A DNA stretch of 64,000 nt, taken from contig CP073261.1 of NCBI GenBank assembly GCA_019739335.1, positions 3,152,001 to 3,216,000 of the forward strand. Reading direction: 5' to 3'. The translations under genes and the position numbers were made by a program. Numbering within the stretch: the first letter of the stretch is position 1; each line of letters opens with the position of its first letter. Below, one piece after another: positions 1,304-51,903 of this stretch. Source of the stretch: Erythrobacter sp. (GTDB lineage: Bacteria > Pseudomonadota > Alphaproteobacteria > Sphingomonadales > Sphingomonadaceae). The notes beneath the pieces were generated by a model that saw only the letters and a program-made list of their open reading frames with translations, ran no database searches and had not been told where the DNA came from.

Positions 1304-1422
1304 GGGCGCGGTGTTATCGGATCATGGTTAAGGTGGTGCTAAAGTCGCACGTCAGTGAGGAAAGCGCCTGTCAATTGTCCAGCGGGCTTGCCAGAATGGA
1401 CTATTGCGAGGTAAATCGTCCC

Positions 1423-2403
1423 ATGACGCCTGAAGCGAAACCGCCGACCAAGGATGTCGAGAGCTGGACCTCGGATGGCCTGGCGCGTCCCGAAGCGATC
1501 AGCCAGTGGCGCGAATGGGCCGCTTCCACCATCGCCCCGGTGGAAGTCGAGGTGTTCGATCCCAACGCTTTCGCCGCGCGCTGGACCAGCCACGGCATCG
1601 GTCAGTTGCGGCTGCTCCACCTCCACGCCCCGGCACAGCGGGTGACGCATACCGGGCTGGAAGGCAGCGCCGGTCGCGCCGCGCCCTCGATCCAGCTGGT
1701 CTATGCCCGCCAAGGCGCGCTCAAGACGACGATGCAGGGCAAACGATTCACCGTGGAGCCGGGGCAATTCGTGCTGGTGGACAATACCAAGTACTACCAG
1801 ATGGAAATGGCGACGCCGCACGAAGCGCTTGACCTGATGATGCCCGCCGCCTGGCTGGAAAAGCACTTGCCCGATCCCGATGCCCTGCTGGCGCAGCCGA
1901 TCAGCGCGCGCGGGGGCTGGGGTGCGCCGCTCGGTGCGCTGCTGGAAACGATGGCGGACGGGCTGGACAACGCCCCCCTCCCCCGCCCGCTGATCGCCGA
2001 GCAGGTCGGCAGCCTGCTGGCGCTCGCCACCGGTTTTCACGAACCGGGCGAAAGCACTCGCCATCGCGGGCAACTGGCGCGGCGGATCCTGCGGCGGATC
2101 GAAAGCGACTATGCCGATCCCGATCTCGGCCCGGAAAAGGTAGCGGAAGATTGCGGTATCTCGAAGCGCTATCTGCAAACGCTGCTGGCGGGCAGCGGCA
2201 CCAGCTTCGTGCAGGAACTGAACGCGATGCGGCTGGACCGCGCGGGTGACCTGCTGATCGATCCGCGTGCGCGCAGCCTCTCGGTCGCCGATATCGCCTA
2301 TCGCACCGGCTTTCTCGATCCGGGCTATTTCACGCGCCTGTTCCGCAAGCGCTTCGGCATTACGCCGAGCCAGTGGCGCGCGGGCCATGCGCCGAACAAC
2401 TGA
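1423..2403 (+). CDS. AraC-family transcriptional regulator
   Basis: The protein has 326 residues from ATG 1423; in-frame starts at 1324 and 1396 would add up to 33 residues of unlikely sequence. The N-terminal half is a cupin-like effector-binding domain of the AraC_binding_2 kind. The C-terminal 100 residues hold two helix-turn-helix units: VAEDCGISKRYLQTLL and, near the end, the typical IAYRTGFLDPGYFTRLFRKR followed by FGITPSQWR. It sits directly upstream, on the same strand, of the hydrolase/dikinase/carboxylase genes and is the obvious candidate for controlling them in response to an aromatic substrate. That control is inferred. Confidence 0.88.
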   Translation: MTPEAKPPTKDVESWTSDGLARPEAISQWREWAASTIAPVEVEVFDPNAFAARWTSHGIGQLRLLHLHAPAQRVTHTGLEGSAGRAAPSIQLVYARQGALKTTMQGKRFTVEPGQFVLVDNTKYYQMEMATPHEALDLMMPAAWLEKHLPDPDALLAQPISARGGWGAPLGALLETMADGLDNAPLPRPLIAEQVGSLLALATGFHEPGESTRHRGQLARRILRRIESDYADPDLGPEKVAEDCGISKRYLQTLLAGSGTSFVQELNAMRLDRAGDLLIDPRARSLSVADIAYRTGFLDPGYFTRLFRKRFGITPSQWRAGHAPNN

Positions 2404-2422
2404 ACGGGATCGGGCAGGAAGC

Positions 2423-3289
2423 GTGAAATTGGTGTTTGCCGTAGTGCTGCTGGGAGTGCTCGCGTTGGGCATATCCTACGCCGTTTCGCCCCTGCGCACC
2501 TTCAACGCGCTGGTGCCCAAGGATGCAGGCAGCCGGAAAATCGTGGATGGCATCGCCTATGGCACGGGAGAGCGGCGCATGCTGGATATCTATGCTCCGG
2601 TGGATGCAGCCAACATCCCGCGCCCGGTGATCGTCTGGTTCTACGGCGGCAGCTGGAATTCGGGCAGCCGCCACGGTTACGACTTCGCCGCGCGGGCGCT
2701 GGCGGCGCAGGGGTTCGTTGTCGTCGTGCCCGATTACCGTTTAGTGCCGGAAGTGCATTTCCCCGGTTTCGTGGAAGATGGCGCGGCCGCAGTGCGCTGG
2801 GTCCGGGCGAATATCGGCGAGCATGGCGGCGATGGCGAGCGGATCGTCCTCGCCGGGCATTCGGCGGGTGCCTATATCGCCGCGATGCTGGCTAACGATC
2901 CGCGCTGGCTGGGCGATGATCGCGCCGCAGTGGCGGGCATGGTCGGGCTGGCAGGTCCATACGATTTCGTGCCCTTCGATACTGATTCCTCGATTGCGGC
3001 CTTTGGCGACTGGCCCGAAGCCGCCGACACCCAGCCGATTACCTTCGCCGATGCCAGCGCCCCACCGGCGCTGCTGCTGACGGGTGAGGACGACACCACC
3101 GTCAAGCCGCGCAACAGCGCAGCTCTCGCGGCCCGGCTCAAGGCAGCCGGGGTCGAGGCCGAAGTGGTGCGCTATGCCGGGGTGGACCATATCGACGTGG
3201 TGATCGCCCTCGCCCGCCCCCTGCGCAGCCGCGCGCCAGTGCTGGAGGATATGGCCCGCTTCACCCGCCGGGTCACGACCCCACAATAA
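2423..3289 (+). CDS. Alpha/beta hydrolase, carboxylesterase-like (BD-FAE/lipase type)
   Basis: The start is GTG 2423, preceded by an AGGAA ribosome site 5 bases upstream, giving 288 residues. The frame is open further upstream but only inside the AraC gene. The N-terminus is a single hydrophobic segment (VFAVVLLGVLALGISYAV), a signal anchor or uncleaved signal peptide. Core motifs are WFYGGSWNSG (oxyanion hole), the nucleophile elbow GHSAG, TGEDDTTV (Asp loop) and VDHIDVV (catalytic His). It probably hydrolyses an ester at or outside the inner membrane. It lies 19 bases after the AraC gene and 148 before the dikinase genes, so membership in the aromatic cluster is possible but not shown. Confidence 0.82.
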   Translation: MKLVFAVVLLGVLALGISYAVSPLRTFNALVPKDAGSRKIVDGIAYGTGERRMLDIYAPVDAANIPRPVIVWFYGGSWNSGSRHGYDFAARALAAQGFVVVVPDYRLVPEVHFPGFVEDGAAAVRWVRANIGEHGGDGERIVLAGHSAGAYIAAMLANDPRWLGDDRAAVAGMVGLAGPYDFVPFDTDSSIAAFGDWPEAADTQPITFADASAPPALLLTGEDDTTVKPRNSAALAARLKAAGVEAEVVRYAGVDHIDVVIALARPLRSRAPVLEDMARFTRRVTTPQ

Positions 3290-3437
3290 GACAAAATCGC
3301 TATCGCATTCATCCCACTCGCCCTGCGCGCGAATCCTTTGCCCTTGCCCCTCGCAAGGCATAGCATCCCGCTCAATCCCGAGCCCCAGGCGAGACGGCGA
3401 AAAGCCGCCGCCGCTCGGGTCGCATACGAGAGGATGC

Positions 3438-5288
3438 ATGATGCCCGAAGCCAAAAGCTTTCCGCTGCCGTCGAGCGTGGCGGTGACCCCCGGTACCGAA
3501 GCGGCACAGGCCGCCTATCCCTACTACTGCCAGTTCGTGCCCGAGGATGACGAGCGGTTCTGGTTCTACAATTCGATGCACTTCCCTGAACCGATGCATC
3601 ATTTCGACATGATCACGGCAGAGGCCGCCTATTGCGCGCTGGGGGCGTTCAATACCCGCGTGCATGTGCTGCCGACCACCAAGGGCATCGATCACCGCAT
3701 CATCAACGGGCGCGTGTTCATCGGCGGGGTGCCGGTCACCGATCCGGAGGAAGTCGCTGCCCGCGTGGTCGAATTCCAGCAGCGCGGATTCTATTACTAC
3801 GAGCACTGGGAAGAGCTTTACGCCAGCTGGAAAGTGAAGATGAAGACGTTGATCGCGGAGGCGCAGGCGCTGCCCGATCCCTCGCTGCCCGAACTGGAGC
3901 CGATCGAGACGACGCATACCGGCAAGGGCGTCGCTGCCAATCACGCGCTGATAGATACCTACCGGAAGACGCTAGAAGGCTATTTCCGGATGTGGCACCA
4001 CCACTTCGAATTCCTGCTGCTAGGCTACGGCGCGTACCTGACCTTCTTCGACTTCTGCAAGAAGGCCTTCCCGGAGATTTCCGACCAGGCGATCAGCCGG
4101 ATGGTGGCGGGAATGGAAGCGGAAATCTTCCGGCCGGACGAAGAGATCAAGCGCCTTGCCCGCCGTGCGGTAGAACTGGGGGTGGACGACCAGTTCACTT
4201 CCGGGATGGACATCGCGCAGGTGCTGGCCGATCTCGACGCGCTGGGCGATCACGGCAAGGAATGGCTGGTCGAGCTCGATACCAGCCGCAACCCGTGGTT
4301 CAACGTCAATGTCGGCGACGGCTTCTACCATTATCACCGCAGCTGGAACGACGACCTGTCGATGCCCTTCTCCGCCCTGCCCGGCTATATCGCCAAGGTG
4401 AAGGCTGGCGAGAATATCGAGCGGCCGATGGAACGGCTGATCGAGGAGCGCGAGGCGCTGGTCGCCGACTATCGCGAACTGCTCGATACCGAGGAGGACC
4501 GGGCGACCTACGATCAGTTGATCGGACTCGCACACCGGGTTTTTCCCTATGTCGAAGGGCATAAGTTCTACTGCGAGCATTGGTACACGAACCTGTTTTT
4601 CAACAAGATCAGGGCGTTCGGTACCCTGCTGGTGGAACACGGCTTCTTCGAGCACGAGGAGGACGTGTTCCACCTCACCCATTACGAACTCGAAAGCGCG
4701 ATCGTCGATCTGATGCTCGCCTGGTCCAGCGGGTCGCCGCCGCTCGGGCCGAAGCGCTGGCCCGCGATTGTCGAACAGCGCAAGGCGGCGATTGCGGTCT
4801 GGGCGGAGGAGACGGTGCCCCCTGCGCTCGGTCATGTGCCCGATGTGATCGACGATCCGGCCATCGTGATGCTGTGGGGGATCACCCGCGACAATCTCGA
4901 TGCCTGGCTGTCCGATGGCGAAGGCGATCCCAACGAGCTGAAGGGCTTTGCTGCCTGTTCGGGCGTGGTCGAAGGCATCGCGCGGGTGGTGAAATCGGCG
5001 AAGGAAATCGACCGCATTCAGCAGGGCGATATCCTTGTCTGTCAGGTCACCAATCCCACGTGGTCGCCGCTGTTCCAGCGGATCAGCGCGGCGGTTTCCG
5101 ATATCGGCGGCTCGATGAGCCACATGGCGATTGTCGCGCGCGAGTACGGCCTGCCTGCCGTGGTCGGCACCGGTTCGGCGACGCAGAAGATCAAGGACGG
5201 CGCGCGGATCAGGGTGGATGGTGGCAAGGGGACGGTGACTATCCTCGAACAGCCTGCCGAGGTCGAGCGCGCGCTGGAGGACGCCTGA
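3438..5288 (+). CDS. Phenylphosphate-synthase-like dikinase, PEP-utilizing catalytic subunit
   Basis: A 616-residue protein whose last 100 residues are the swivelling phosphohistidine domain of PEP synthase/PPDK. The motif GGSMSHMAIVAREYGLPAVVG contains the catalytic His at about residue 562. The rest lacks an ATP-grasp domain; that is supplied by the next gene, 3 bases downstream. This split, and the sizes (616 + 348 residues), match subunits 1 and 2 of phenylphosphate synthase (Thauera aromatica) and the kinases of acetovanillone pathways (AcvAB of SYK-6, HpeHI of Rhodococcus). The expected reaction is transfer of the beta-phosphoryl of ATP, via phospho-His, to a phenolic hydroxyl, releasing AMP and Pi. 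The start ATG follows GAGAGG. The exact phenol is inferred. Confidence 0.82.
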   Translation: MMPEAKSFPLPSSVAVTPGTEAAQAAYPYYCQFVPEDDERFWFYNSMHFPEPMHHFDMITAEAAYCALGAFNTRVHVLPTTKGIDHRIINGRVFIGGVPVTDPEEVAARVVEFQQRGFYYYEHWEELYASWKVKMKTLIAEAQALPDPSLPELEPIETTHTGKGVAANHALIDTYRKTLEGYFRMWHHHFEFLLLGYGAYLTFFDFCKKAFPEISDQAISRMVAGMEAEIFRPDEEIKRLARRAVELGVDDQFTSGMDIAQVLADLDALGDHGKEWLVELDTSRNPWFNVNVGDGFYHYHRSWNDDLSMPFSALPGYIAKVKAGENIERPMERLIEEREALVADYRELLDTEEDRATYDQLIGLAHRVFPYVEGHKFYCEHWYTNLFFNKIRAFGTLLVEHGFFEHEEDVFHLTHYELESAIVDLMLAWSSGSPPLGPKRWPAIVEQRKAAIAVWAEETVPPALGHVPDVIDDPAIVMLWGITRDNLDAWLSDGEGDPNELKGFAACSGVVEGIARVVKSAKEIDRIQQGDILVCQVTNPTWSPLFQRISAAVSDIGGSMSHMAIVAREYGLPAVVGTGSATQKIKDGARIRVDGGKGTVTILEQPAEVERALEDA

Positions 5289-5291
5289 ACC

Positions 5292-6338
5292 ATGCAGGCA
5301 GTGGCATGGTTCGCCGATGTCGGCATTGCCGATCGCCCGACCGTGGGCGGCAAGGGCGGTTCGCTCGGCGAACTGACGCAGGCGGGCATCGCCGTGCCGC
5401 CCGGCTTCGTCGTGACGACTGCCGCGTTCGAGCAATTCCTCGCGCTGCTCGAAGCCAACGCGCCGCTGCGCGAACTGGTCGAAGGCCTCGATCCCAACGA
5501 CCTGGGCGCCGCCACCAAATTGTCCGAACAATTGCGCGCACTGGTGCTGGAAGAACCAATGCCCGACGACCTCGATACCGCCCTCACCCAGGCGCACCAG
5601 CAGCTCTGTGCCGATAACCAGCCCGTTGCCGTCCGCTCATCCGCGACCACGGAGGATGCCGAGGACGCCAGCTTTGCCGGTTTGCAGGACACCTTCCTCT
5701 GGGTACTCGATGCCGCTTCGATGGTGCAGAAGGTGCGCGAATGCTGGGCCAGCCTCTATTCGGTTGAGAGCATGACCTACCGTCGCAAGCACGCGATTCC
5801 CGAAGCGCAGGTGGCGATGGCGGTGGTGGTGCAGCGGATGGTCGATGCCAAATGCGCAGGGGTGATGTTCACCCGCTCGCCCACCACGGGGGACAAGTCG
5901 GTTATCACGATCGAGGGTGCCTGGGGTCTCGGCAGCGCGGTCGTTTCGGGCGAGGTCACGCCCGACAAATGGGTGCTGGGGAAGATCACCGGAGAAATTT
6001 CCGCCCGCGACATATCGGACAAGCACGCCCGGCAGGTCCCTGCTCCCGGTGGCGGAATCGTCGAGGTGGAGAACGATGCGGACCTCCGCCATTCCCCCTG
6101 CCTCACCGATGACGAACTGATGGCCCTGCGCGAAGTCGGCCGCAAGGTGGAGCGGCATTACGGCAAGCCGCAGGATATCGAATGGGCGGTGGACAAGGCG
6201 GGCGGCGTGGTCCTGCTCCAGTCACGCCCGGAAACGGTTTGGGCGGTGAAAGATGCCCAGGCAAAACCCGTTGCTCCGCCGAGCGACAACCCGCTCGCGC
6301 ACGTGATGGGCATTTTCGGCGGGGGCGCGCGCCCATGA
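5292..6338 (+). CDS. Dikinase ATP-binding subunit (PEP/pyruvate-binding domain protein)
   Basis: A 348-residue protein equal to the N-terminal ATP-grasp half of PEP synthase. Visible motifs are VGGKGGSLGEL and GIAVPPGFVVTT (residues 18-43), VRSSATTEDAEDASFAG (114-130, nucleotide-binding loop), EGAWGLGSAVVSGEVTPD and the closing LLQSRPETVW. It has no phosphohistidine domain, so it must work with the preceding subunit, phosphorylating its His from ATP. In phenylphosphate synthase the equivalent is subunit 2 (about 40 kDa). The start is 3 bases after the upstream stop, and the stop overlaps the biotin-carrier start as ATGA, implying coupled synthesis. The CBS-type third subunit of phenylphosphate synthase is not seen. 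Confidence 0.85.
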   Translation: MQAVAWFADVGIADRPTVGGKGGSLGELTQAGIAVPPGFVVTTAAFEQFLALLEANAPLRELVEGLDPNDLGAATKLSEQLRALVLEEPMPDDLDTALTQAHQQLCADNQPVAVRSSATTEDAEDASFAGLQDTFLWVLDAASMVQKVRECWASLYSVESMTYRRKHAIPEAQVAMAVVVQRMVDAKCAGVMFTRSPTTGDKSVITIEGAWGLGSAVVSGEVTPDKWVLGKITGEISARDISDKHARQVPAPGGGIVEVENDADLRHSPCLTDDELMALREVGRKVERHYGKPQDIEWAVDKAGGVVLLQSRPETVWAVKDAQAKPVAPPSDNPLAHVMGIFGGGARP

Positions 6339-6826
6339 CTTCTGGACCGAGCCTGACCGGCAAGGACATCGCCGAAATCGCCCGCCTGCTCGACGCGAGC
6401 CATTTCACCGCGCTCGACCTGCAACTGGGCGAGATGAAACTGCGGATTCGGCGTGAGGGTGCGCGGGAGGAGGAATACCCACCTCAGCGAGTCCCCGCGA
6501 AGGCGGGGACCTCAGGCGAAGATGCACCAGATCCCCGCCTGCGCGGGGATTCAGTGAAGGATCAAGCGGCAGAAGCAGGCGCAGGCGAAGTCGACGTCAT
6601 CGCCCCACTGCTCGGCAACTATTACGCTGCGCCCCGTCCCGGCGAAGACCCCTTCGTGCAGGTGGGCGACCGGGTTGGGGAAGACACCGTGATCGCCATC
6701 ATCGAAGTGATGAAGCTGATGAACTCGGTCCGCGCAGGGGTTTCCGGCACGGTCACGGCGGTGCTGGTGGAGAATGGCTGCGCGGTTGAGGCTGGGCAGG
6801 CGCTGATCCGGGTGAGGGCTGACTGA
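6335..6826 (+). CDS. Biotin carboxyl carrier protein (AccB-like) with repeat-derived linker
   Basis: A 163-residue protein. Residues 10-40 (DIAEIARLLDASHFTALDLQ, then GEMKLRIRR) resemble the AccB N-terminal helix and strand. Residues 84-163 form a biotinyl domain with IIEVMKLMNSV, where Lys127 in VMKL is the biotinylation site; the common motif is AMKM, so the flanks differ. The domain joins the carboxyltransferase at 6950. The linker at about residues 53-73 (VPAKAGT to PRLRGDS) is encoded by two hairpins of a dispersed genomic repeat, explaining its unusual composition. Start ATG overlaps the previous stop (ATGA). The gene is shorter than fused pyruvate carboxylases, and no biotin carboxylase domain is present. 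Confidence 0.85.
   Translation: MTSGPSLTGKDIAEIARLLDASHFTALDLQLGEMKLRIRREGAREEEYPPQRVPAKAGTSGEDAPDPRLRGDSVKDQAAEAGAGEVDVIAPLLGNYYAAPRPGEDPFVQVGDRVGEDTVIAIIEVMKLMNSVRAGVSGTVTAVLVENGCAVEAGQALIRVRAD
6491..6550 (+). repeat. Two short palindromic repeat units inside the biotin-carrier gene
   Basis: Two GC-rich hairpins lie 20 bases apart: gtccccgcgaaggcggggac (6491-6510) and atccccgcctgcgcggggat (6531-6550). This is the kind of dispersed palindrome often seen between genes in alphaproteobacteria. Here it is translated in frame (VPAKAGT and PRLRGDS) in the flexible linker of the carrier protein. Confidence 0.75.
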
Positions 6827-6851
6827 TGACCTTCGCTACGCCCACCCTCCT

Positions 6852-6933
6852 CGTCACCCCGGACTTGATCCGAGTCCCGCTTTTCTGCGGCACTCACAAG
6901 GTAGCGGGACCCCGGGTCAAGCCCGGGGTGACG
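6852..6933. repeat. Intergenic inverted repeat (REP-like), CGTCACCCCGG type
   Basis: The outer arms CGTCACCCCGGACTTGATCC and GGGTCAAGCCCGGGGTGACG are near-perfect inverted repeats. Inner arms, AGTCCCGCT and AGCGGGACC, extend the stem. The element fills almost the whole gap between the carrier gene and the carboxyltransferase gene and could form a large hairpin in the mRNA that tunes the carrier:transferase ratio. It is a dispersed-repeat type, not a factor-independent terminator (no T run). Confidence 0.75.
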
Positions 6934-6949
6934 TAAGGAAATAGACGAA

Positions 6950-8410
6950 ATGGCCCGTATAGACATCGTCGAAACCTCCTTGCGCGATGGCAACCAGTGC
7001 CTGTGGGGGGCGACCGGGATCGACACCGCCAAGACGCTGACCGTAGCACCCGCCATGGAACGCGCAGGTTATCGCGCGATTGATTTCACCACCTCGACCC
7101 ACATGGGTGTGGCGGTGCGGTTCAAGCAGGAAGACCCGTGGGAACGCATCCGGGCGATGGCGGAGATCTGCCGCAAGACGCCGCTGCAATTCCTCAGCAC
7201 CGGCTTCCGTTTCATCGCCTGGGAAACCGCCACCCCGGATTTCATGGAACTGGCCTTCCGCACATTGGCGCGCAACGGCATCCGCCGCTTCGCCCTCGCC
7301 GATCCGATGAACGATGCCGCGTCGAACGCCGAAGTCGCGGGCATGGTGAAGCGCGCGGGCGGCGAACAGGTGGTCGGCGCGCTGGTCTATTCGATCAGCC
7401 CGATCCATGACGATGCGCACTATGCCGCCGCCGCGCGGACGATGGCGGCCTGCCCGCATATCGATGCGCTCTACATCAAGGACCCCGGTGGCCTGCTCAC
7501 CCCCAAGCGCGCGGGCACGCTGATCCCGGCGATCCTCGCCGAAATCGGCGATATGCCGCTGGAACTGCACAACCACTGCACCATCGGCCTTGCCGAACCC
7601 GCCTGCCTCGAAGCCGCCGATCTGGGCGTGGCAGCGGTGCAATGCGCCAGTGGCGGCGCGGCGGACGGCACCAGCAATCCGCCGATCACCCGCATGATCG
7701 CCAACCTGCGCGCGGCGGGCCACACCGTCGATGTCGATGACGAAGCGGTGGAGGAAGTCTCCGCCTTCTTCACCGCGATGGCGGCGGCGGAAGACCTGAC
7801 CACCGGCTCGCCGCGCGCGTTCGACGCTGCCTATTTCCAGCACAACCTGCCCGGCGGCATGGTTGGCACCATGCGGCGCCACTTGGCCGATCACGGCTGC
7901 CCCGAAAAGGAAGGCGCGGTTATCGAGGAAATGGGCCGCGTGCGCCGCGAACTGGGCTGGCCGATCGTGATGACCCCTTTCGCGCAGATGCTGCAAACGC
8001 AAGCGGTGATGAACGTGACCGCTGCCGAGCGCTGGAGCGTGATCCCGGACGAGATCATCCGCTTCGCCATTGGCCGGTTCGGGCGGCCCAATGCGCCGGT
8101 CGATCCGGATGTGATGGACCGGATCATGGCCAACCCGCGCACCAAGCAGTTGCAGGAAGAGACCGGCATGGCCGACGTCAAGACGCTGCGCAGCAAGCTG
8201 GGCGAGCGGCTCTCCGAAGAGGAATTCCTGCTGCGCGCGACCATGCCGGAGAACCTGGTCGAAGCGATGCGCAAGGCCGGACCAGCCGAACGCGCTTACG
8301 AACCGCGCAAGATCCCGCTGATGAACCTGCTGCGCGACCTCCTCGCCCGCACCGATCTGGACGAGGTAAACATCGAAAAGGGCGACATGAAGCTGGAACT
8401 GCGGGTGTGA
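6950..8410 (+). CDS. Biotin-dependent carboxyltransferase (pyruvate carboxylase CT / oxaloacetate decarboxylase alpha-like)
   Basis: A 486-residue TIM-barrel carboxyltransferase of the HMGL-like family. TSLRDGNQCLW (residues 9-19, Asp13), VRFKQEDPWERIR, YIKDPGGLLTP (Lys177, equivalent to the carboxylated metal-site Lys of KDMAG) and LELHNH (His207 and His209, metal ligands) are all present. The barrel is followed by the conserved carboxylase domain. Unlike pyruvate carboxylase or OadA it has no biotinyl domain; instead it ends in NIEKGDMKLELRV, a tail resembling the AccB N-terminus of the upstream carrier. By analogy with acetovanillone carboxylases it should move CO2 from carboxybiotin to the methyl carbon of a phosphorylated aryl methyl ketone; the substrate is inferred. 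Confidence 0.85.
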   Translation: MARIDIVETSLRDGNQCLWGATGIDTAKTLTVAPAMERAGYRAIDFTTSTHMGVAVRFKQEDPWERIRAMAEICRKTPLQFLSTGFRFIAWETATPDFMELAFRTLARNGIRRFALADPMNDAASNAEVAGMVKRAGGEQVVGALVYSISPIHDDAHYAAAARTMAACPHIDALYIKDPGGLLTPKRAGTLIPAILAEIGDMPLELHNHCTIGLAEPACLEAADLGVAAVQCASGGAADGTSNPPITRMIANLRAAGHTVDVDDEAVEEVSAFFTAMAAAEDLTTGSPRAFDAAYFQHNLPGGMVGTMRRHLADHGCPEKEGAVIEEMGRVRRELGWPIVMTPFAQMLQTQAVMNVTAAERWSVIPDEIIRFAIGRFGRPNAPVDPDVMDRIMANPRTKQLQEETGMADVKTLRSKLGERLSEEEFLLRATMPENLVEAMRKAGPAERAYEPRKIPLMNLLRDLLARTDLDEVNIEKGDMKLELRV

Positions 8411-8424
8411 GGCTTTGGCCAGAC

Positions 8425-8527
8425 CGTCATTGCGAGGAGCCGAAGCGACGCGGCAATCCATCTCCGGCCGTATCGAGATATCGCGAGGGCAGGTGATGGA
8501 TTGCTTCGCCTACTGCTCGCAATGACG
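8425..8527. repeat. Intergenic inverted repeat, CGTCATTGCGAG type, copy 1
   Basis: Left arm CGTCATTGCGAGGAGC...GGCAATCCA and right arm TGGATTGCTTCG...CTCGCAATGACG are inverted copies of one another. The element occupies most of the gap between the carboxyltransferase and HAD genes. A second copy lies at 23211-23312, with the same arms but a different centre, so this is a dispersed mobile palindrome (MITE/REP-like). Confidence 0.8.
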
Positions 8528-8542
8528 AAAAGGTGAATCTCC

Positions 8543-9367
8543 ATGCGCACACCCAAGGGCTTCATGTTCGATCTCGACGGAACGCTGATCCTCTCGAACC
8601 GCTCGCTCGGCGGCTACACCGCCATTCCCGGCGCGAAGGAGGCGCTGGAGGAACTCGACGCGCTTGGCATTCCGTGGATCGCGCTCACCAACGGCAGCGC
8701 CTTCGCGAGCGACGTGCAGGCGCCCAAGCTGCGCGCGGTCGGCCTGCCGGTGGCGGACGAACGGCTGTTCACACCCAATTCGGTGGCCGCCAGGGTGATT
8801 GCGGATCGCGGCTATCAGCGGGTGCTGGTGCTCGGCAATGCCGGAGTGATCGCGGCGCTCGAACAGCTCGGCGTCACCTGCGTCGGCCCTGACGCGGCGG
8901 ACCACGCGGGCTGCGACGCGGTCTATGTCGCCTGGCATCCGGACTGCTCGATGCCGCACCTCCACGCCGCCTGCGAGGCAGTGCTGGACAACGGCGCGGC
9001 GCTGCTCACCGCGTCGGACGTGCCGTTCTTCGCCACCCGCGAGGGGCGCAGCTTTGGCTATTCGTGTGCGATCAACGGGGCGATCGCGCGGGTGACCGGG
9101 TCCGAGCCCGAAGCGACCGGCAAGCCCTCCGCCCACGCGATGGCCTTCGTCGCCGCCCAAATGGGCCTAGCGCCCGAAGATGTCGCCATCGTCGGGGACG
9201 ACGCCAAGGCGGAAATGCAGATGGCGCAGGAAGGCGGGGCCATCGGCATTGCCGTCACCAGCGGCTCGACGAGCGCGGAGCAATGGGCGAGCCAGGTGCC
9301 CGAACGCACGCCGCATCTGGTGATCGATAGCGTGGGCGATCTGGTGGCGGCCTGCGGCTTGCGGTAA
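8543..9367 (+). CDS. HAD-superfamily phosphatase, subfamily IIA (NagD-like)
   Basis: A 274-residue HAD hydrolase with motif I FDLDGTL (Asp10 nucleophile, Asp12), motif II LTNGS and motif IV VGDDAKAEMQMA; the central C2-type cap marks subfamily IIA (NagD/4-nitrophenylphosphatase-like). ATG 8543 follows AAAAGGTGAATCTCC. In the acetovanillone and phenylphosphate systems a HAD-type phosphatase removes the activating phosphate after carboxylation. Its place between the carboxyltransferase and DUF3445 genes fits that role, but a general sugar-phosphate or nucleotide phosphatase cannot be excluded. Confidence 0.8.
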   Translation: MRTPKGFMFDLDGTLILSNRSLGGYTAIPGAKEALEELDALGIPWIALTNGSAFASDVQAPKLRAVGLPVADERLFTPNSVAARVIADRGYQRVLVLGNAGVIAALEQLGVTCVGPDAADHAGCDAVYVAWHPDCSMPHLHAACEAVLDNGAALLTASDVPFFATREGRSFGYSCAINGAIARVTGSEPEATGKPSAHAMAFVAAQMGLAPEDVAIVGDDAKAEMQMAQEGGAIGIAVTSGSTSAEQWASQVPERTPHLVIDSVGDLVAACGLR

Positions 9368-9375
9368 CGCAGAGC

Positions 9376-10164
9376 ATGGCCTCGCTCGGATTCAGCGTCG
9401 ATGAACTGCTCCCGCGTGCCCGCGCGGGTGGCGCGCTGAAAATGGGGCTGGCGGCGCTTTCTGAATCCGAATGGCTCCAGCCGCAGCCTGACCTCGCAGC
9501 GCGCGCGGCAGCCTTCGACCAATATCCTGAAAGCGTGCAACTCACTCCAGAAGCGGTGGCTGCGGGCGAAGAACTGGCGGCTATGGTTGGCACTAGTGGC
9601 GGGCTGGAAGGCGCTGCGCGCGCGATGTGGGAGGACATGTGCCTGCTCGCCCCCGATTCAGAGGGCGTGTACCGCCTGATCGGTGCGGCGGTGGCCTTCC
9701 CCACCGACTGGCACCCGGCGGACAAGCTCGGCCTGCCACTGATCGGGCTGCACAAGCCGATCCACGGCTATGCCGACCAGCTCGCCAGCGGGGTCGATCA
9801 CTTCATGGCCAAGCTACAACCAGGGCGGATATTCGGGCGCTGCAACTGGTTCGTCAGTCCTACGGACGCGCTGCGCTGGATCGAAACGGATCCGCCGGAA
9901 GTGAGCTTCGCCCATGTCACCGCGCAGAACGCGGGCGAAGCCCTGTTCGTCCGCAGCGAACGCCAGACCCTGCGTCGCCTGCCGCAAACTGGCGTGATTG
10001 TGTTCACTATCGGAGTATATGTGACGGCTTTGGGTCATCTCGCTCCGGCCAATTTGGACCGAATGGCAGAGGCCTTGCAGACCATTCCCCGACAGGAAGC
10101 AGAACGACGTGGTTCACCGCATTTTGCGTCGCAGCTCATCGCTTTCGCTTCCAACGCTGCCTAA
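9376..10164 (+). CDS. DUF3445 protein, heme-dependent oxidative demethylase-like
   Basis: A 262-residue soluble protein with the DUF3445 pattern: FPTDWHPADKLGLPLIGLHKPIHGYADQL, then VDHFMAKLQPGR and RCNWFVSP in the middle, and RSERQTLRRLPQTGVIVFTI late in the chain. The characterised member of this family is the alpha subunit of heme-dependent oxidative N-demethylase, which demethylates dimethylamine. The gene starts 8 bases after the HAD gene, so it is co-transcribed with the dikinase/carboxylase set. Its 3' end overlaps the convergent HlyD gene by 4 bases. Demethylation of an aryl methyl ether such as a methoxyphenol is a speculative role from context. Confidence 0.7.
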   Translation: MASLGFSVDELLPRARAGGALKMGLAALSESEWLQPQPDLAARAAAFDQYPESVQLTPEAVAAGEELAAMVGTSGGLEGAARAMWEDMCLLAPDSEGVYRLIGAAVAFPTDWHPADKLGLPLIGLHKPIHGYADQLASGVDHFMAKLQPGRIFGRCNWFVSPTDALRWIETDPPEVSFAHVTAQNAGEALFVRSERQTLRRLPQTGVIVFTIGVYVTALGHLAPANLDRMAEALQTIPRQEAERRGSPHFASQLIAFASNAA

Positions 10165-50074: not shown

Positions 50075-50899
50075 ATGGCGCTCCTGAGTTTCGAGCGGAA
50101 GTATCGTGTGCGCGGTGGGACGCTGATCGGCGGCGACCTGTTCGATTTCTGGGTCGGCCCATTCTACGTGGGCTTCTTCGGAGTGGTGACGGCGATCTTC
50201 GCCTCACTGGGAACGGCGCTGATCTTCTATGCCGCCTCGCAGGGGCCGACATGGAACCCGTGGCTGATATCCATCGCTCCGCCCGATTTGTCCTACGGCC
50301 TCGGCCTTGCCCCGCTGCTCGAAGGCGGCTTCTGGCAGGTGATCACCGTCTGCGCGATCATTTCCTTCACTTCCTGGGCACTGCGAGAGGTGGAGATCTG
50401 CCGCAAGCTGGGCATGGGATACCATGTGCCGGTGGCCTTCGGCTTCGCCATCTTCGCCTATGTCAGCCTGGTGGTGATCCGCCCGATCCTGCTCGGCGGC
50501 TGGCACTTCGGCTTCCCTTACGGGATTTTCAGCCACCTCGACTGGGTATCCAACACCGGATACCAGTACCTGCACTTCCACTACAATCCGGCGCATATGC
50601 TTGCGGTGAGCTTCTTCTTCACCACCACCCTGGCGCTGGCGCTGCACGGGGCCCTGGTCCTGTCGGCCACCAATCCCGCACCGGGACAGGACGTGAAGAC
50701 GCCGGAATATGAAGACACCTTCTTCCGCGACCTGATCGGCTATTCGGTCGGCACGCTGGGCATCCACCGCGTGGGCCTGCTGCTGGCGCTGAATGCCGGC
50801 TTCTGGAGCGCGGTATGCATCATCATCAGTGGACCGCTGTGGACCAAAGGCTGGCCCGAATGGTGGACCTGGTGGCTCAATCTCCCGATCTGGTCGTGA
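50075..50899 (+). CDS. pufL: Photosynthetic reaction centre L subunit
   Basis: 274 residues from ATG 50075, preceded by GGGAGGGTAAAGCT; a frame open 6 codons upstream is not needed. The start [20 protein letters not shown] is the standard PufL N-terminus. Five membrane helices follow, with the His in [16 protein letters not shown] and the C-terminal His in [15 protein letters not shown] binding bacteriochlorophyll, quinone or the non-heme iron. It binds the special pair with PufM. Confidence 0.97.
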
Positions 50900-50913: not shown

Positions 50914-51903
50914 ATGGCTCGCTATCAAAACATCTTCACTCAGGTCCAGCTGATCGCCCCCAACGAGGGCGGCATCGCCCTGCCTCGCGGCGGTGAACCA
51001 CGGATCAACCTGTTCTCGCGCAGCGGCCTGATGGGGCGGCTGGGGCAAGGCCAACTCGGGCCGATCTACCTCGGCTGGTCGGGTCTCGCCTCGCTGATGT
51101 TCGGCTTCCTCGCGATCGAGATCATCGGGCTCAACATGCTCGCCTCGGTCAACTGGGATCCGATCGAGTTCATCCGGCAACTGCCGTGGCTGGCGCTCGA
51201 GCCGCCGGGGCCGGAGTATGGCTTCACCCCGTTCGTACCCTTGGCCGAAGGCGGCTGGTGGATCCTCGCCGGCTTCAGCCTGACCACGGCGATCATCCTG
51301 TGGTGGGTGCGCACCTATCGCCGCGCCCGCGCGCTGGGAATGGGTACACACGTTGCCTGGGCCTTCGCCGCTGCAATCTGGCTCTATCTGGTGCTCGGCT
51401 TCATCCGCCCGATGTTCATGGGCAGCTGGGCGGAGGCGGTGCCCTTCGGCATCTTCCCGCACCTTGACTGGACCGCCGCCTTCTCGATCCGCTACGGCAA
51501 CCTGTTCTACAATCCGTTCCACGCCCTCTCGATCGCCTTCCTCTATGGCTCAACCCTGCTCTTCGCGATGCACGGGGCGACGATCCTGGCGGTCGGCCGT
51601 TACGGCGGCGAGCGCGAGATCGAACAGATCACGGATCGCGGCACTGCGGCCGAACGCGGGGCGCTGTTCTGGCGCTGGACGATGGGCTTCAACGCCACGA
51701 TGGAATCGGTCCATCGCTGGGCCTGGTGGTTCGCGGTGCTGACCACGCTGACCGGCGGGATCGGCATCCTGCTGACCGGCACGGTGGTGGATAACTGGTA
51801 TCTCTGGGCGCAGGAGCACGGTTACGCTCCCGCTTATCCCGCCAGCGGGATTGTCGATCCAGCAGGTTTGGCGCCAGAAGGCTTGGGGAGTGTGACAGAA
51901 TGA
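50914..51903 (+). CDS. pufM: Photosynthetic reaction centre M subunit
   Basis: A 329-residue M subunit with the standard start [11 protein letters not shown], five membrane helices, the special-pair ligand region [20 protein letters not shown] and [20 protein letters not shown] with the iron-binding His. Its stop overlaps the pufC start (ATGA), so PufC is translated in step. Confidence 0.97.

What the first reader, a model, noticed from the sequence alone, without database searches (positions are those of the whole stretch)
2423..10164. Acetovanillone-type (acv/hpe-like) phosphorylation-carboxylation cluster in a phototroph
The gene set encodes a split dikinase like phenylphosphate synthase (616 + 348 residues, catalytic His near 562), a biotin carrier protein, a biotin carboxyltransferase and a HAD phosphatase, directly after an AraC regulator. 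Known acetovanillone/4-hydroxyacetophenone pathways (Acv of Sphingobium SYK-6, Hpe of Rhodococcus) use exactly this logic. Linking it to an aerobic anoxygenic phototroph would extend lignin-aromatic metabolism to such organisms. The assignment to a particular ketone is an inference.
Basis: partly seen in the sequence, partly recalled or inferred. Interest (0 to 1): 0.7.

Follow-up and report, generated by a model that had tools for sequence, protein, structure and literature searches.

The report
Lignin-ketone operon lacking its biotin carboxylase
A phototrophic bacterium carries the gene set that other bacteria use to break down the lignin fragment acetovanillone, but one of the three parts of its key enzyme is missing here and in several unrelated bacteria, so a part of the cell's fat-making machinery may stand in for it.

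Summary
The gene set is real. It matches acvABCDEF of Sphingobium SYK-6 in order and sequence, minus one gene: dikinase subunits 85% and 71% identical with the same catalytic His562, biotin carrier 49%, carboxyltransferase 70%, phosphatase 62%, AraC regulator 74%. The host encodes PufLM, LigM, LigAB-type dioxygenase and two PobA proteins.

It is not in the operon, and the genome holds no orthologue; its best BC is AccC at 51%. Of 81 related operons (80 fetched plus the window) 41 lack BC, 38 have it, 2 are cut off. The carboxyltransferase tree needs five changes and rejects a single BC-less clade. BC-less operons show purifying selection. Carrier residue 37 is basic in 38 of 40 BC-less proteins, 0 of 30 with BC, and 22 of 22 AccB rows.

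Best reading: a working Acv/Hpe pathway whose carboxylase borrows the housekeeping AccC; a new variant of a known pathway. The loss is shown; the borrowing and the substrate are inferred.

The parts
1324..2403 (+). AraC-family regulator, likely activator of the cluster
   Evidence: Pfam HTH_18 and AraC_binding_2; 74% identical to the AraC protein next to SYK-6 acv; AraC gene in the same place in most relatives shown
2423..3289 (+). alpha/beta hydrolase (BD-FAE / Abhydrolase_3), accessory; substrate unknown
   Evidence: Pfam E 2.1e-32; a homologue in 7 of 40 BC-less and 0 of 38 BC-bearing loci
3438..5288 (+). AcvA/HpeH-type dikinase subunit (substrate and swivel domains), catalytic His562
   Evidence: PEP-utilizers; 85% to SYK-6 AcvA, same motif and His number
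5292..6338 (+). AcvB/HpeI-type ATP-grasp dikinase subunit
   Evidence: PPDK_N E 1.2e-102; 71% to SYK-6
6335..6826 (+). biotin carboxyl carrier protein (biotinyl Lys127) with AccB-type basic residue 37
   Evidence: Biotin_lipoyl; 49% to SYK-6 carrier; residue 37 analysis
6827..6949 (.). gap where BC-bearing relatives have a ~450-codon biotin carboxylase gene; holds a repeat-like palindrome (arms near 6853 and 6915)
   Evidence: sequence; position of BC in relatives; repeat arms
6950..8410 (+). carboxyltransferase subunit (pyruvate carboxylase/OadA type); metal-site residues D13, K177, H207, H209 invariant in 15 aligned relatives
   Evidence: PYC_OADA and HMGL-like; invariant columns; 70% to SYK-6. 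The role of these four residues is recalled from pyruvate carboxylases
8543..9367 (+). HAD-IIA type phosphatase (AcvF/HpeD type)
   Evidence: Hydrolase_6 and Hydrolase_like; 62% to SYK-6
9376..10164 (+). HODM_asu-like haem protein, accessory; role unknown
   Evidence: PF11927 E 1.2e-40; PDB 5lte E 1.4e-6; in 9 of 40 BC-less and 0 of 38 BC-bearing loci

Best explanation
This is an acetovanillone/4-hydroxyacetophenone (Acv/Hpe) pathway operon in a phototrophic relative of Alteraurantiacibacter (family Erythrobacteraceae by its named relatives). The two-part dikinase phosphorylates the phenol hydroxyl. The biotin carrier and carboxyltransferase add CO2 to the acetyl methyl group. The HAD phosphatase removes the phosphate, leaving an aryl beta-keto acid that other enzymes cut to vanillate or 4-hydroxybenzoate. 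The operon-encoded biotin carboxylase has been lost in this lineage and, separately, in others. I infer that the housekeeping AccC of acetyl-CoA carboxylase, the only free-standing BC left in this genome, loads carboxyl groups onto the pathway's carrier protein, whose N-terminal hairpin is changed accordingly. Shown: gene set, orthology, absence of BC, repeated loss, purifying selection, carrier change that goes with BC loss. Inferred: enzymatic activity, substrate, and AccC as partner.
For: Orthology and order with the SYK-6 acv locus. BC absent from the operon and from the genome: the complete-looking one-contig G000 holds AccC (51% to SYK-6 BC, passes the TIGR00514 cut-off) and two longer BC-containing subunits of 688 and 637 aa. 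Of 28 acv-bearing genomes searched, 9 hold a BC orthologue at 71-100% and 19 have nothing above 52% (four of the 19 are 73-87% complete or fragmentary, so single cases could be gaps). Of 16 further genomes, 12 BC-less ones stop at 48-52% and 4 BC-bearing ones reach 69-72% (two of the 12 repeat genomes). Five changes of BC state on the carboxyltransferase tree, AU p 1.06e-65 against one BC-less clade. dN/dS 0.022-0.303 over 46 gene comparisons in 10 BC-less pairs. Basic residue 37 in the carrier: BC-less 38 of 40, BC-bearing 0 of 30, AccB 22 of 22 rows (G000 twice). In the Chloroflexus BC1 crystal structure the carrier's N-terminal beta-hairpin contacts the BC N-terminal sub-domain, and its deletion lowers BC activity (PMC11077971, section 6).
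Against: No experiment. The AccB-likeness of BC-less carriers is modest: N-terminal AccB profile score -18.0 against -26.6 for BC-bearing alphaproteobacteria, true AccB 107.5; the shift is not confined to the docking part (biotinyl domain 54.3 against 28.3), and in acidobacteria the biotinyl domain goes the other way (29.1 against 37.3). Of 20 N-terminal columns that differ, 5 match AccB in the BC-less group, 3 in the BC-bearing group, 12 in neither. Residue 37 was picked after looking; on the tree there are only 4 independent pairs (3.7 go the same way, none the other), p 0.125. The same paper says that E. coli BCCP-BC is held by the carrier core and that hairpin conformations differ greatly. 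The own AccB is only 33% identical to the carrier.
Confidence: 0.6

Rival explanations
1. BC is supplied by one of the two longer BC-containing acyl-CoA carboxylase subunits (PccA- or MccA-like) instead of AccC.
For: Both are present in G000 (688 and 637 aa). In six loci (five BC-less: L126, L127, L128, L131, L147; one BC-bearing: L146) the operon is followed by genes that I read as methylmalonyl-CoA epimerase and mutase.
Against: These proteins appear to carry their own fused carrier domain (length, by eye), so their BC domain is expected to serve in cis; the neighbourhood is also seen with a BC-bearing operon.
Confidence: 0.1
2. The BC-less enzyme is a transcarboxylase: the carrier takes its carboxyl group from an organic donor such as methylmalonyl-CoA or oxaloacetate, so the pathway step needs no ATP.
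For: The carboxyltransferase is homologous to the transcarboxylase 5S subunit (PDB 1s3h, 1rqb; E 2.6e-45 and 1.2e-44), and that enzyme has no BC (recalled). Five BC-less operons sit beside genes read as methylmalonyl-CoA epimerase and mutase.
Against: No 12S-type second carboxyltransferase in the operon. The BC-facing N-terminal part of the carrier has not decayed but changed in a constrained way. Its nearest solved relatives are a pyruvate carboxylase subunit and OadA, not 5S.
Confidence: 0.08
3. The operon is a decaying remnant without carboxylase activity; at most the dikinase and phosphatase still act, for example in phosphorylating phenols.
For: A missing catalytic component is what decay would look like. 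Repeat-like palindromes sit in the carrier gene and both following gaps.
Against: All five remaining genes are intact in the window and under purifying selection across 10 BC-less pairs (dN/dS 0.022-0.303). The carboxyltransferase is as constrained as in BC-bearing pairs, the biotin site VMKL is kept in 41 of 41 BC-less carriers, and the five-gene unit persists in families and phyla far apart.
Confidence: 0.12
4. The operon acts on another phenolic ketone or phenol (for example 4-hydroxypropiophenone, or a cresol-type phenol) and acetovanillone is incidental.
For: Specificity cannot be read from sequence. The dikinase family also serves phenol and 4-cresol (PMC9618137, PMC12167813).
Against: 85% identity of the substrate-binding dikinase subunit to SYK-6 AcvA, a complete carboxylation-dephosphorylation set, and LigM, LigAB-type and PobA genes in the genome.
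Confidence: 0.1

Closest known systems
acvABCDEF of Sphingobium lignivorans SYK-6 (acetovanillone/acetosyringone)
   Same: Same gene order, AraC gene upstream, 49-85% protein identity, same catalytic His562. [quoted passage not shown] the SYK-6 paper itself is not held).
   Different: SYK-6 has a biotin carboxylase gene between carrier and carboxyltransferase; here it is missing. The window adds an esterase-like gene and a HODM_asu-like gene. The carrier is the most diverged part (49%).
hpeHICBADEF of Rhodococcus rhodochrous GD02
   Same: Same biochemical set as described: two-part dikinase, biotin carrier, carboxyltransferase, NagD-like phosphatase (PMC9618137, parts 1-4 of 6).
   Different: GD02 has its own biotin carboxylase HpeA plus HpeE and HpeF in the operon; none of these three lies in the window's operon. 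The sequences were not compared here.
Xcc carboxylase of Aromatoleum aromaticum EbN1
   Same: Described as about 50% identical to HpeCBA and clustered with hpeHI homologues (PMC9618137).
   Different: Anaerobic pathway with three subunits; not compared here.
Propionibacterium transcarboxylase (5S, 12S, 1.3S)
   Same: Carboxyltransferase and carrier are homologous to 5S and 1.3S, and it works without a biotin carboxylase (recalled).
   Different: No 12S-type partner in the operon; sequence is nearer to pyruvate carboxylase beta and OadA.
Carboxylases that share one biotin carboxylase (for example actinobacterial AccA3 systems)
   Same: Principle of one BC serving several carboxyltransferases (recalled, not searched).
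   Different: There the shared subunit is a BC-carrier fusion; here a free AccC would serve a second, separate carrier protein.

Membership tests
Acv/Hpe hydroxyphenylethanone pathway | two-component dikinase of the AcvAB/HpeHI type with swivel His in T/SXXGGXXXH | tested here: met
   85% and 71% to SYK-6; SDIGGSMSH, His562; motif as given in PMC12167813 (passage)
Acv/Hpe hydroxyphenylethanone pathway | biotin carboxyl carrier protein with biotinyl lysine | tested here: met
   Biotin_lipoyl E 6.4e-17; EVMKLMN, Lys127; 49% to SYK-6
Acv/Hpe hydroxyphenylethanone pathway | OadA/PycB-type carboxyltransferase | tested here: met
   PYC_OADA; 70% to SYK-6; inside the SYK-6 carboxyltransferase group of the tree, support 100/99
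Acv/Hpe hydroxyphenylethanone pathway | dedicated biotin carboxylase (AcvD/HpeA) | tested here: not met
   absent from operon and genome; hence filed as a variant, not as a standard member
Acv/Hpe hydroxyphenylethanone pathway | HAD phosphatase (AcvF/HpeD) | tested here: met
   62% to SYK-6
Acv/Hpe hydroxyphenylethanone pathway | enzymes that cut the aryl beta-keto acid (HpeE/HpeF or VceA/VceB) | tested here: inconclusive
   BKACE (PF05853) 0 matches (that VceA is of this family is recalled and unsure). Best homologue of the amidohydrolase found beside relatives' operons is 39% and LigW2-like. HpeE and VceB not searched.
Acv/Hpe hydroxyphenylethanone pathway | conversion of acetovanillone or 4-hydroxyacetophenone | not testable with these tools
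   needs cells or enzymes
Phenylphosphate synthase/carboxylase (anaerobic phenol) | carboxylase not of the biotin type | tested here: not met
   the operon encodes a biotin carrier and an OadA-type carboxyltransferase; the paper states that the phenylphosphate carboxylase is not homologous to HpeCBA (PMC9618137)
Transcarboxylase (Propionibacterium type) | 5S-like and 12S-like carboxyltransferases plus carrier, no BC | tested here: inconclusive
   5S-like homology and no BC, but no 12S-type gene among the operon's genes; a 12S-like partner elsewhere in the genome was not searched for

The most novel reading that the evidence does not exclude
The BC-less carboxylase is an ATP-independent transcarboxylase: in Erythrobacteraceae, acidobacteria and others the lignin ketone is carboxylated by transfer from methylmalonyl-CoA, malonyl-CoA or oxaloacetate through a dedicated carrier, so aromatic catabolism draws its carboxyl group from central metabolism and not from bicarbonate.
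Probability: 0.08. Interest if true: 0.8.

Novelty: new variant of a known kind. Interest (0 to 1): 0.5.

Why it matters
If AccC is the partner, the rate-limiting enzyme of fatty-acid synthesis and a lignin catabolic pathway share a subunit, which would couple the two, and anyone moving this operon into another host would have to supply a matching biotin carboxylase. It also offers repeated natural experiments (five changes of BC state on one tree) on what a carrier protein needs in order to change its biotin carboxylase. It extends the gene set to phototrophic and other Erythrobacteraceae and to acidobacteria. One published survey figure, as quoted in PMC13101465, counts kinase and carboxylase clustered in 52 of 836 cases; whether that survey noticed missing BC genes I could not check (paper not held).

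Tried and rejected
Considered and set aside. (1) BC moved elsewhere in the genome: rejected for G000 by PF02786 and by the SYK-6 BC. (2) BC missed by gene calling: rejected by tblastn on the loci and by the short gaps (largest gap in a BC-less locus 240 bp). (3) One old loss inherited by all: rejected by the tree and AU test, with the limit that one fork near the window could be one loss plus a regain (L134/L144). (4) BC-less carrier simply replaced by the own AccB: rejected, 33% identity, and AccB forms its own clade. (5) AccB mimicry as a clean, docking-specific signal: not borne out; the profile shift is modest and spread over the protein. (6) The carrier tree separates all 33 alphaproteobacterial BC-less carriers from BC-bearing ones (SH-aLRT 99), at odds with the carboxyltransferase tree, which puts Novosphingobium sp. 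B 225 beside a BC-bearing row. With other carrier families added the split weakens (SH-aLRT 84), so swap and convergence cannot be told apart. (7) The similarity of the carboxyltransferase C-terminus to the AccB N-terminus was seen by eye and not tested. (8) No structure was predicted; a complex of carrier and AccC could not be modelled with a single-chain tool.

Rows dropped: from the carrier comparison, 5 of 35 BC-bearing and 1 of 41 BC-less carriers whose called gene was under 140 aa. Three BC-bearing loci had no called carrier. Two loci (L130, L149) are cut before the carrier and have no BC status. The 80 loci are the best 80 of 394 and so do not sample distant members such as Rhodococcus. 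AccB rows come from the window's family only (22 rows, one genome twice); acidobacterial AccB proteins were only looked at.

Papers. PMC9618137: parts 1-4 of 6 and passages. PMC13101465, PMC11837543, PMC4737184, PMC12167813: passages. PMC11077971: passages, section 6, first part of the discussion. Higuchi 2022 and the MarK paper are not held. That a BC-less Acv/Hpe operon is unreported rests only on the searches and the parts read, and is therefore weak.


Full report
What is there. The stretch 1324-10164 holds, on the + strand, an AraC regulator, an alpha/beta hydrolase, the two subunits of a dikinase, a biotin carrier protein, an OadA/pyruvate-carboxylase-type carboxyltransferase, a HAD-IIA type phosphatase and a HODM_asu-like protein. 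The motif T/SXXGGXXXH and the role of its His are given in the HpeHI paper (PMC12167813, passage).

Orthology. A search of 298 genomes of the window's family with the carboxyltransferase gave matches in 72 genomes. Of these, 28 (the own genome included) are at 71-100% identity; ten places at 45-48% belong to operons with a different upstream gene; the rest are lower. The best 80 of 394 matches in the named genome collection include Sphingobium sp. SYK-6 itself (L154, NC_015976.1). Its order AraC, AcvA, AcvB, carrier, BC, carboxyltransferase, phosphatase matches the window gene for gene except for BC and the inserted hydrolase. Identities to SYK-6: AraC 74%, dikinase 85% and 71%, carrier 49%, carboxyltransferase 70%, phosphatase 62%. 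[quoted passage not shown]

Host. The genome is one contig of 3,220,578 bases. Photosynthetic reaction-centre genes lie at window 50162-50893 and 51064-51825. A same-genus genome, G014, has a contig of the same length (939,366) as the record of Alteraurantiacibacter aquimixticola, so the host is probably a relative in Erythrobacteraceae. Three of the six other genomes of its genus have the operon. Just upstream of the window lie genes for a p-hydroxycinnamoyl-CoA hydratase/lyase and both subunits of a protocatechuate 4,5-dioxygenase-type enzyme, all over their NCBIfam cut-offs. Elsewhere are a LigM orthologue (811 bits to PDB 5tl4), a second LigM-like protein (481 bits) and two p-hydroxybenzoate hydroxylases over the cut-off. 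The products expected from acetovanillone and 4-hydroxyacetophenone could therefore be used.

What is missing. In the published pathway the carboxylase has three parts, one of them a biotin carboxylase (PMC9618137; PMC13101465). The window has 123 bp between the carrier and carboxyltransferase genes, where BC-bearing relatives have a gene of about 450 codons. The genome holds three BC-type proteins: AccC, next to its own carrier AccB, and two longer subunits of 688 and 637 aa. The best matches the SYK-6 BC at 51%. Over 28 operon-bearing genomes, 9 have a BC orthologue at 71-100% and 19 have nothing above 52%. Four of those 19 are 73-87% complete or fragmentary, but G000 and several others are at 99-100%. 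In 16 further genomes, 12 BC-less ones reach only 48-52% and 4 BC-bearing ones 69-72% (G310 and G311 repeat G138 and G069).

Repeated loss. Over the 80 named loci plus the window, 41 lack BC, 38 have it and 2 are cut off. On the carboxyltransferase tree of 85 rows (4 outgroup rows) the BC state changes five times, and starred branches force five. Holding the BC-less rows together is rejected, AU p 1.06e-65. The BC-less groups are a large Erythrobacteraceae clade with the window, a four-row clade beside it, Novosphingobium sp. B 225, seven acidobacterial rows and one gammaproteobacterial MAG row whose contig starts inside the carrier gene. That BC was there first is an inference from its spread and from the outgroup operons, 9 of 10 of which show it, the tenth being cut. 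Near the window one loss plus one regain (L134, L144) is possible instead of two losses.

Still in use. In 10 BC-less pairs, dN/dS over 46 gene comparisons runs from 0.022 to 0.303; two BC-bearing pairs give 0.118-0.231. The biotin site VMKL is kept in 41 of 41 BC-less carriers. This speaks against decay.

How it probably works. The only free-standing BC in the genome is AccC. In the crystal structure of Chloroflexus BC1, the N-terminal beta-hairpin of the carrier contacts the BC N-terminal sub-domain, and removing it lowers BC activity (PMC11077971, section 6). In the corresponding hairpin of the Acv carriers, position 37 is Arg or Lys in 38 of 40 BC-less proteins, in 0 of 30 BC-bearing ones and in 22 of 22 AccB rows. 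On the tree this gives 4 independent pairs, on average 3.7 in the same direction and none against, p 0.125, which cannot reach significance with so few. The position was chosen after looking. A whole-profile comparison shows only a modest shift towards AccB, in the biotinyl domain as much as in the hairpin, and in acidobacteria only in the hairpin. The paper also notes that E. coli AccB and AccC are held by the carrier core. The carrier tree groups all alphaproteobacterial BC-less carriers apart from BC-bearing ones, less firmly when other families are added. I take this as support for a partner change of the carrier, with AccC the likeliest partner, at odds of about 0.6.

Steps shown and inferred. 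Shown: gene content, orthology, missing BC, its repeated loss, selection, and the association of carrier residue 37 with BC state. Inferred: phosphorylation, carboxylation and dephosphorylation of acetovanillone or 4-hydroxyacetophenone, AccC as the BC, and the use of the product. Not found: the last two enzymes. Relatives often carry a divergent amidohydrolase gene beside the operon (16 of 40 BC-less and 1 of 38 BC-bearing loci). CouO, the enzyme to which HpeF is 95% identical, is an amidohydrolase-superfamily protein (PMC4737184; PMC9618137 Table 1). The window's genome has only a 39% homologue, which is LigW2-like.

Verdict. The point of interest is what it did not see: a carboxylase that has lost its biotin carboxylase several times and appears to work on.

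Noticed in passing
window 6491-6551 (inside the carrier gene), 6853-6932, 8426-8530: Three different palindromic, REP-like repeats sit in the operon: one in frame in the linker of the carrier protein, one in each of the two following gaps. A copy of the first also lies inside the gene read as methylmalonyl-CoA mutase (L075:4583).
   Followed up: partly
L148:7466-9001 (Croceibacterium xixiisoli): This BC-bearing relative has an in-frame insertion of about 47 residues in its biotin carboxylase, from a repeat-like sequence (by eye), shortly before the glycine-rich loop; possibly an intermediate of loss.
   Followed up: partly
window 9376-10164 and relatives: A HODM_asu-like (haem-dependent oxidative N-demethylase alpha-like) gene accompanies 9 of 40 BC-less and 0 of 38 BC-bearing operons; role unknown.
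   Followed up: partly
L057:1574-2707 and the amidohydrolase gene beside it; similar genes in L117, L120, L122, L123, L125: A class III CoA-transferase (PF02515, scanned in L057 only) and an amidohydrolase (PF04909, scanned in L055 only) lie divergently from the AraC gene in several relatives; candidates for the CoA activation and beta-keto cleavage steps.
   Followed up: partly
L126, L127, L128, L131, L147 (BC-less), L146 (BC-bearing): The operon is directly followed by genes read (by eye) as methylmalonyl-CoA epimerase and mutase; a propionyl-CoA-yielding substrate or plain neighbourhood.
   Followed up: no
   Followed up: no
L052 (G032:C11): A more distant carboxyltransferase (32%) also follows a carrier gene with no BC called between them; not checked further.
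   Followed up: no
L199 (G000:352000-371500): A second aromatic gene group in the same genome: LigW2-like decarboxylase (509 bits to PDB 4inf) beside genes that look by eye like a vanillyl-alcohol-oxidase-type flavoprotein, an aldehyde dehydrogenase and a carotenoid-oxygenase-type (lignostilbene) dioxygenase.
   Followed up: partly
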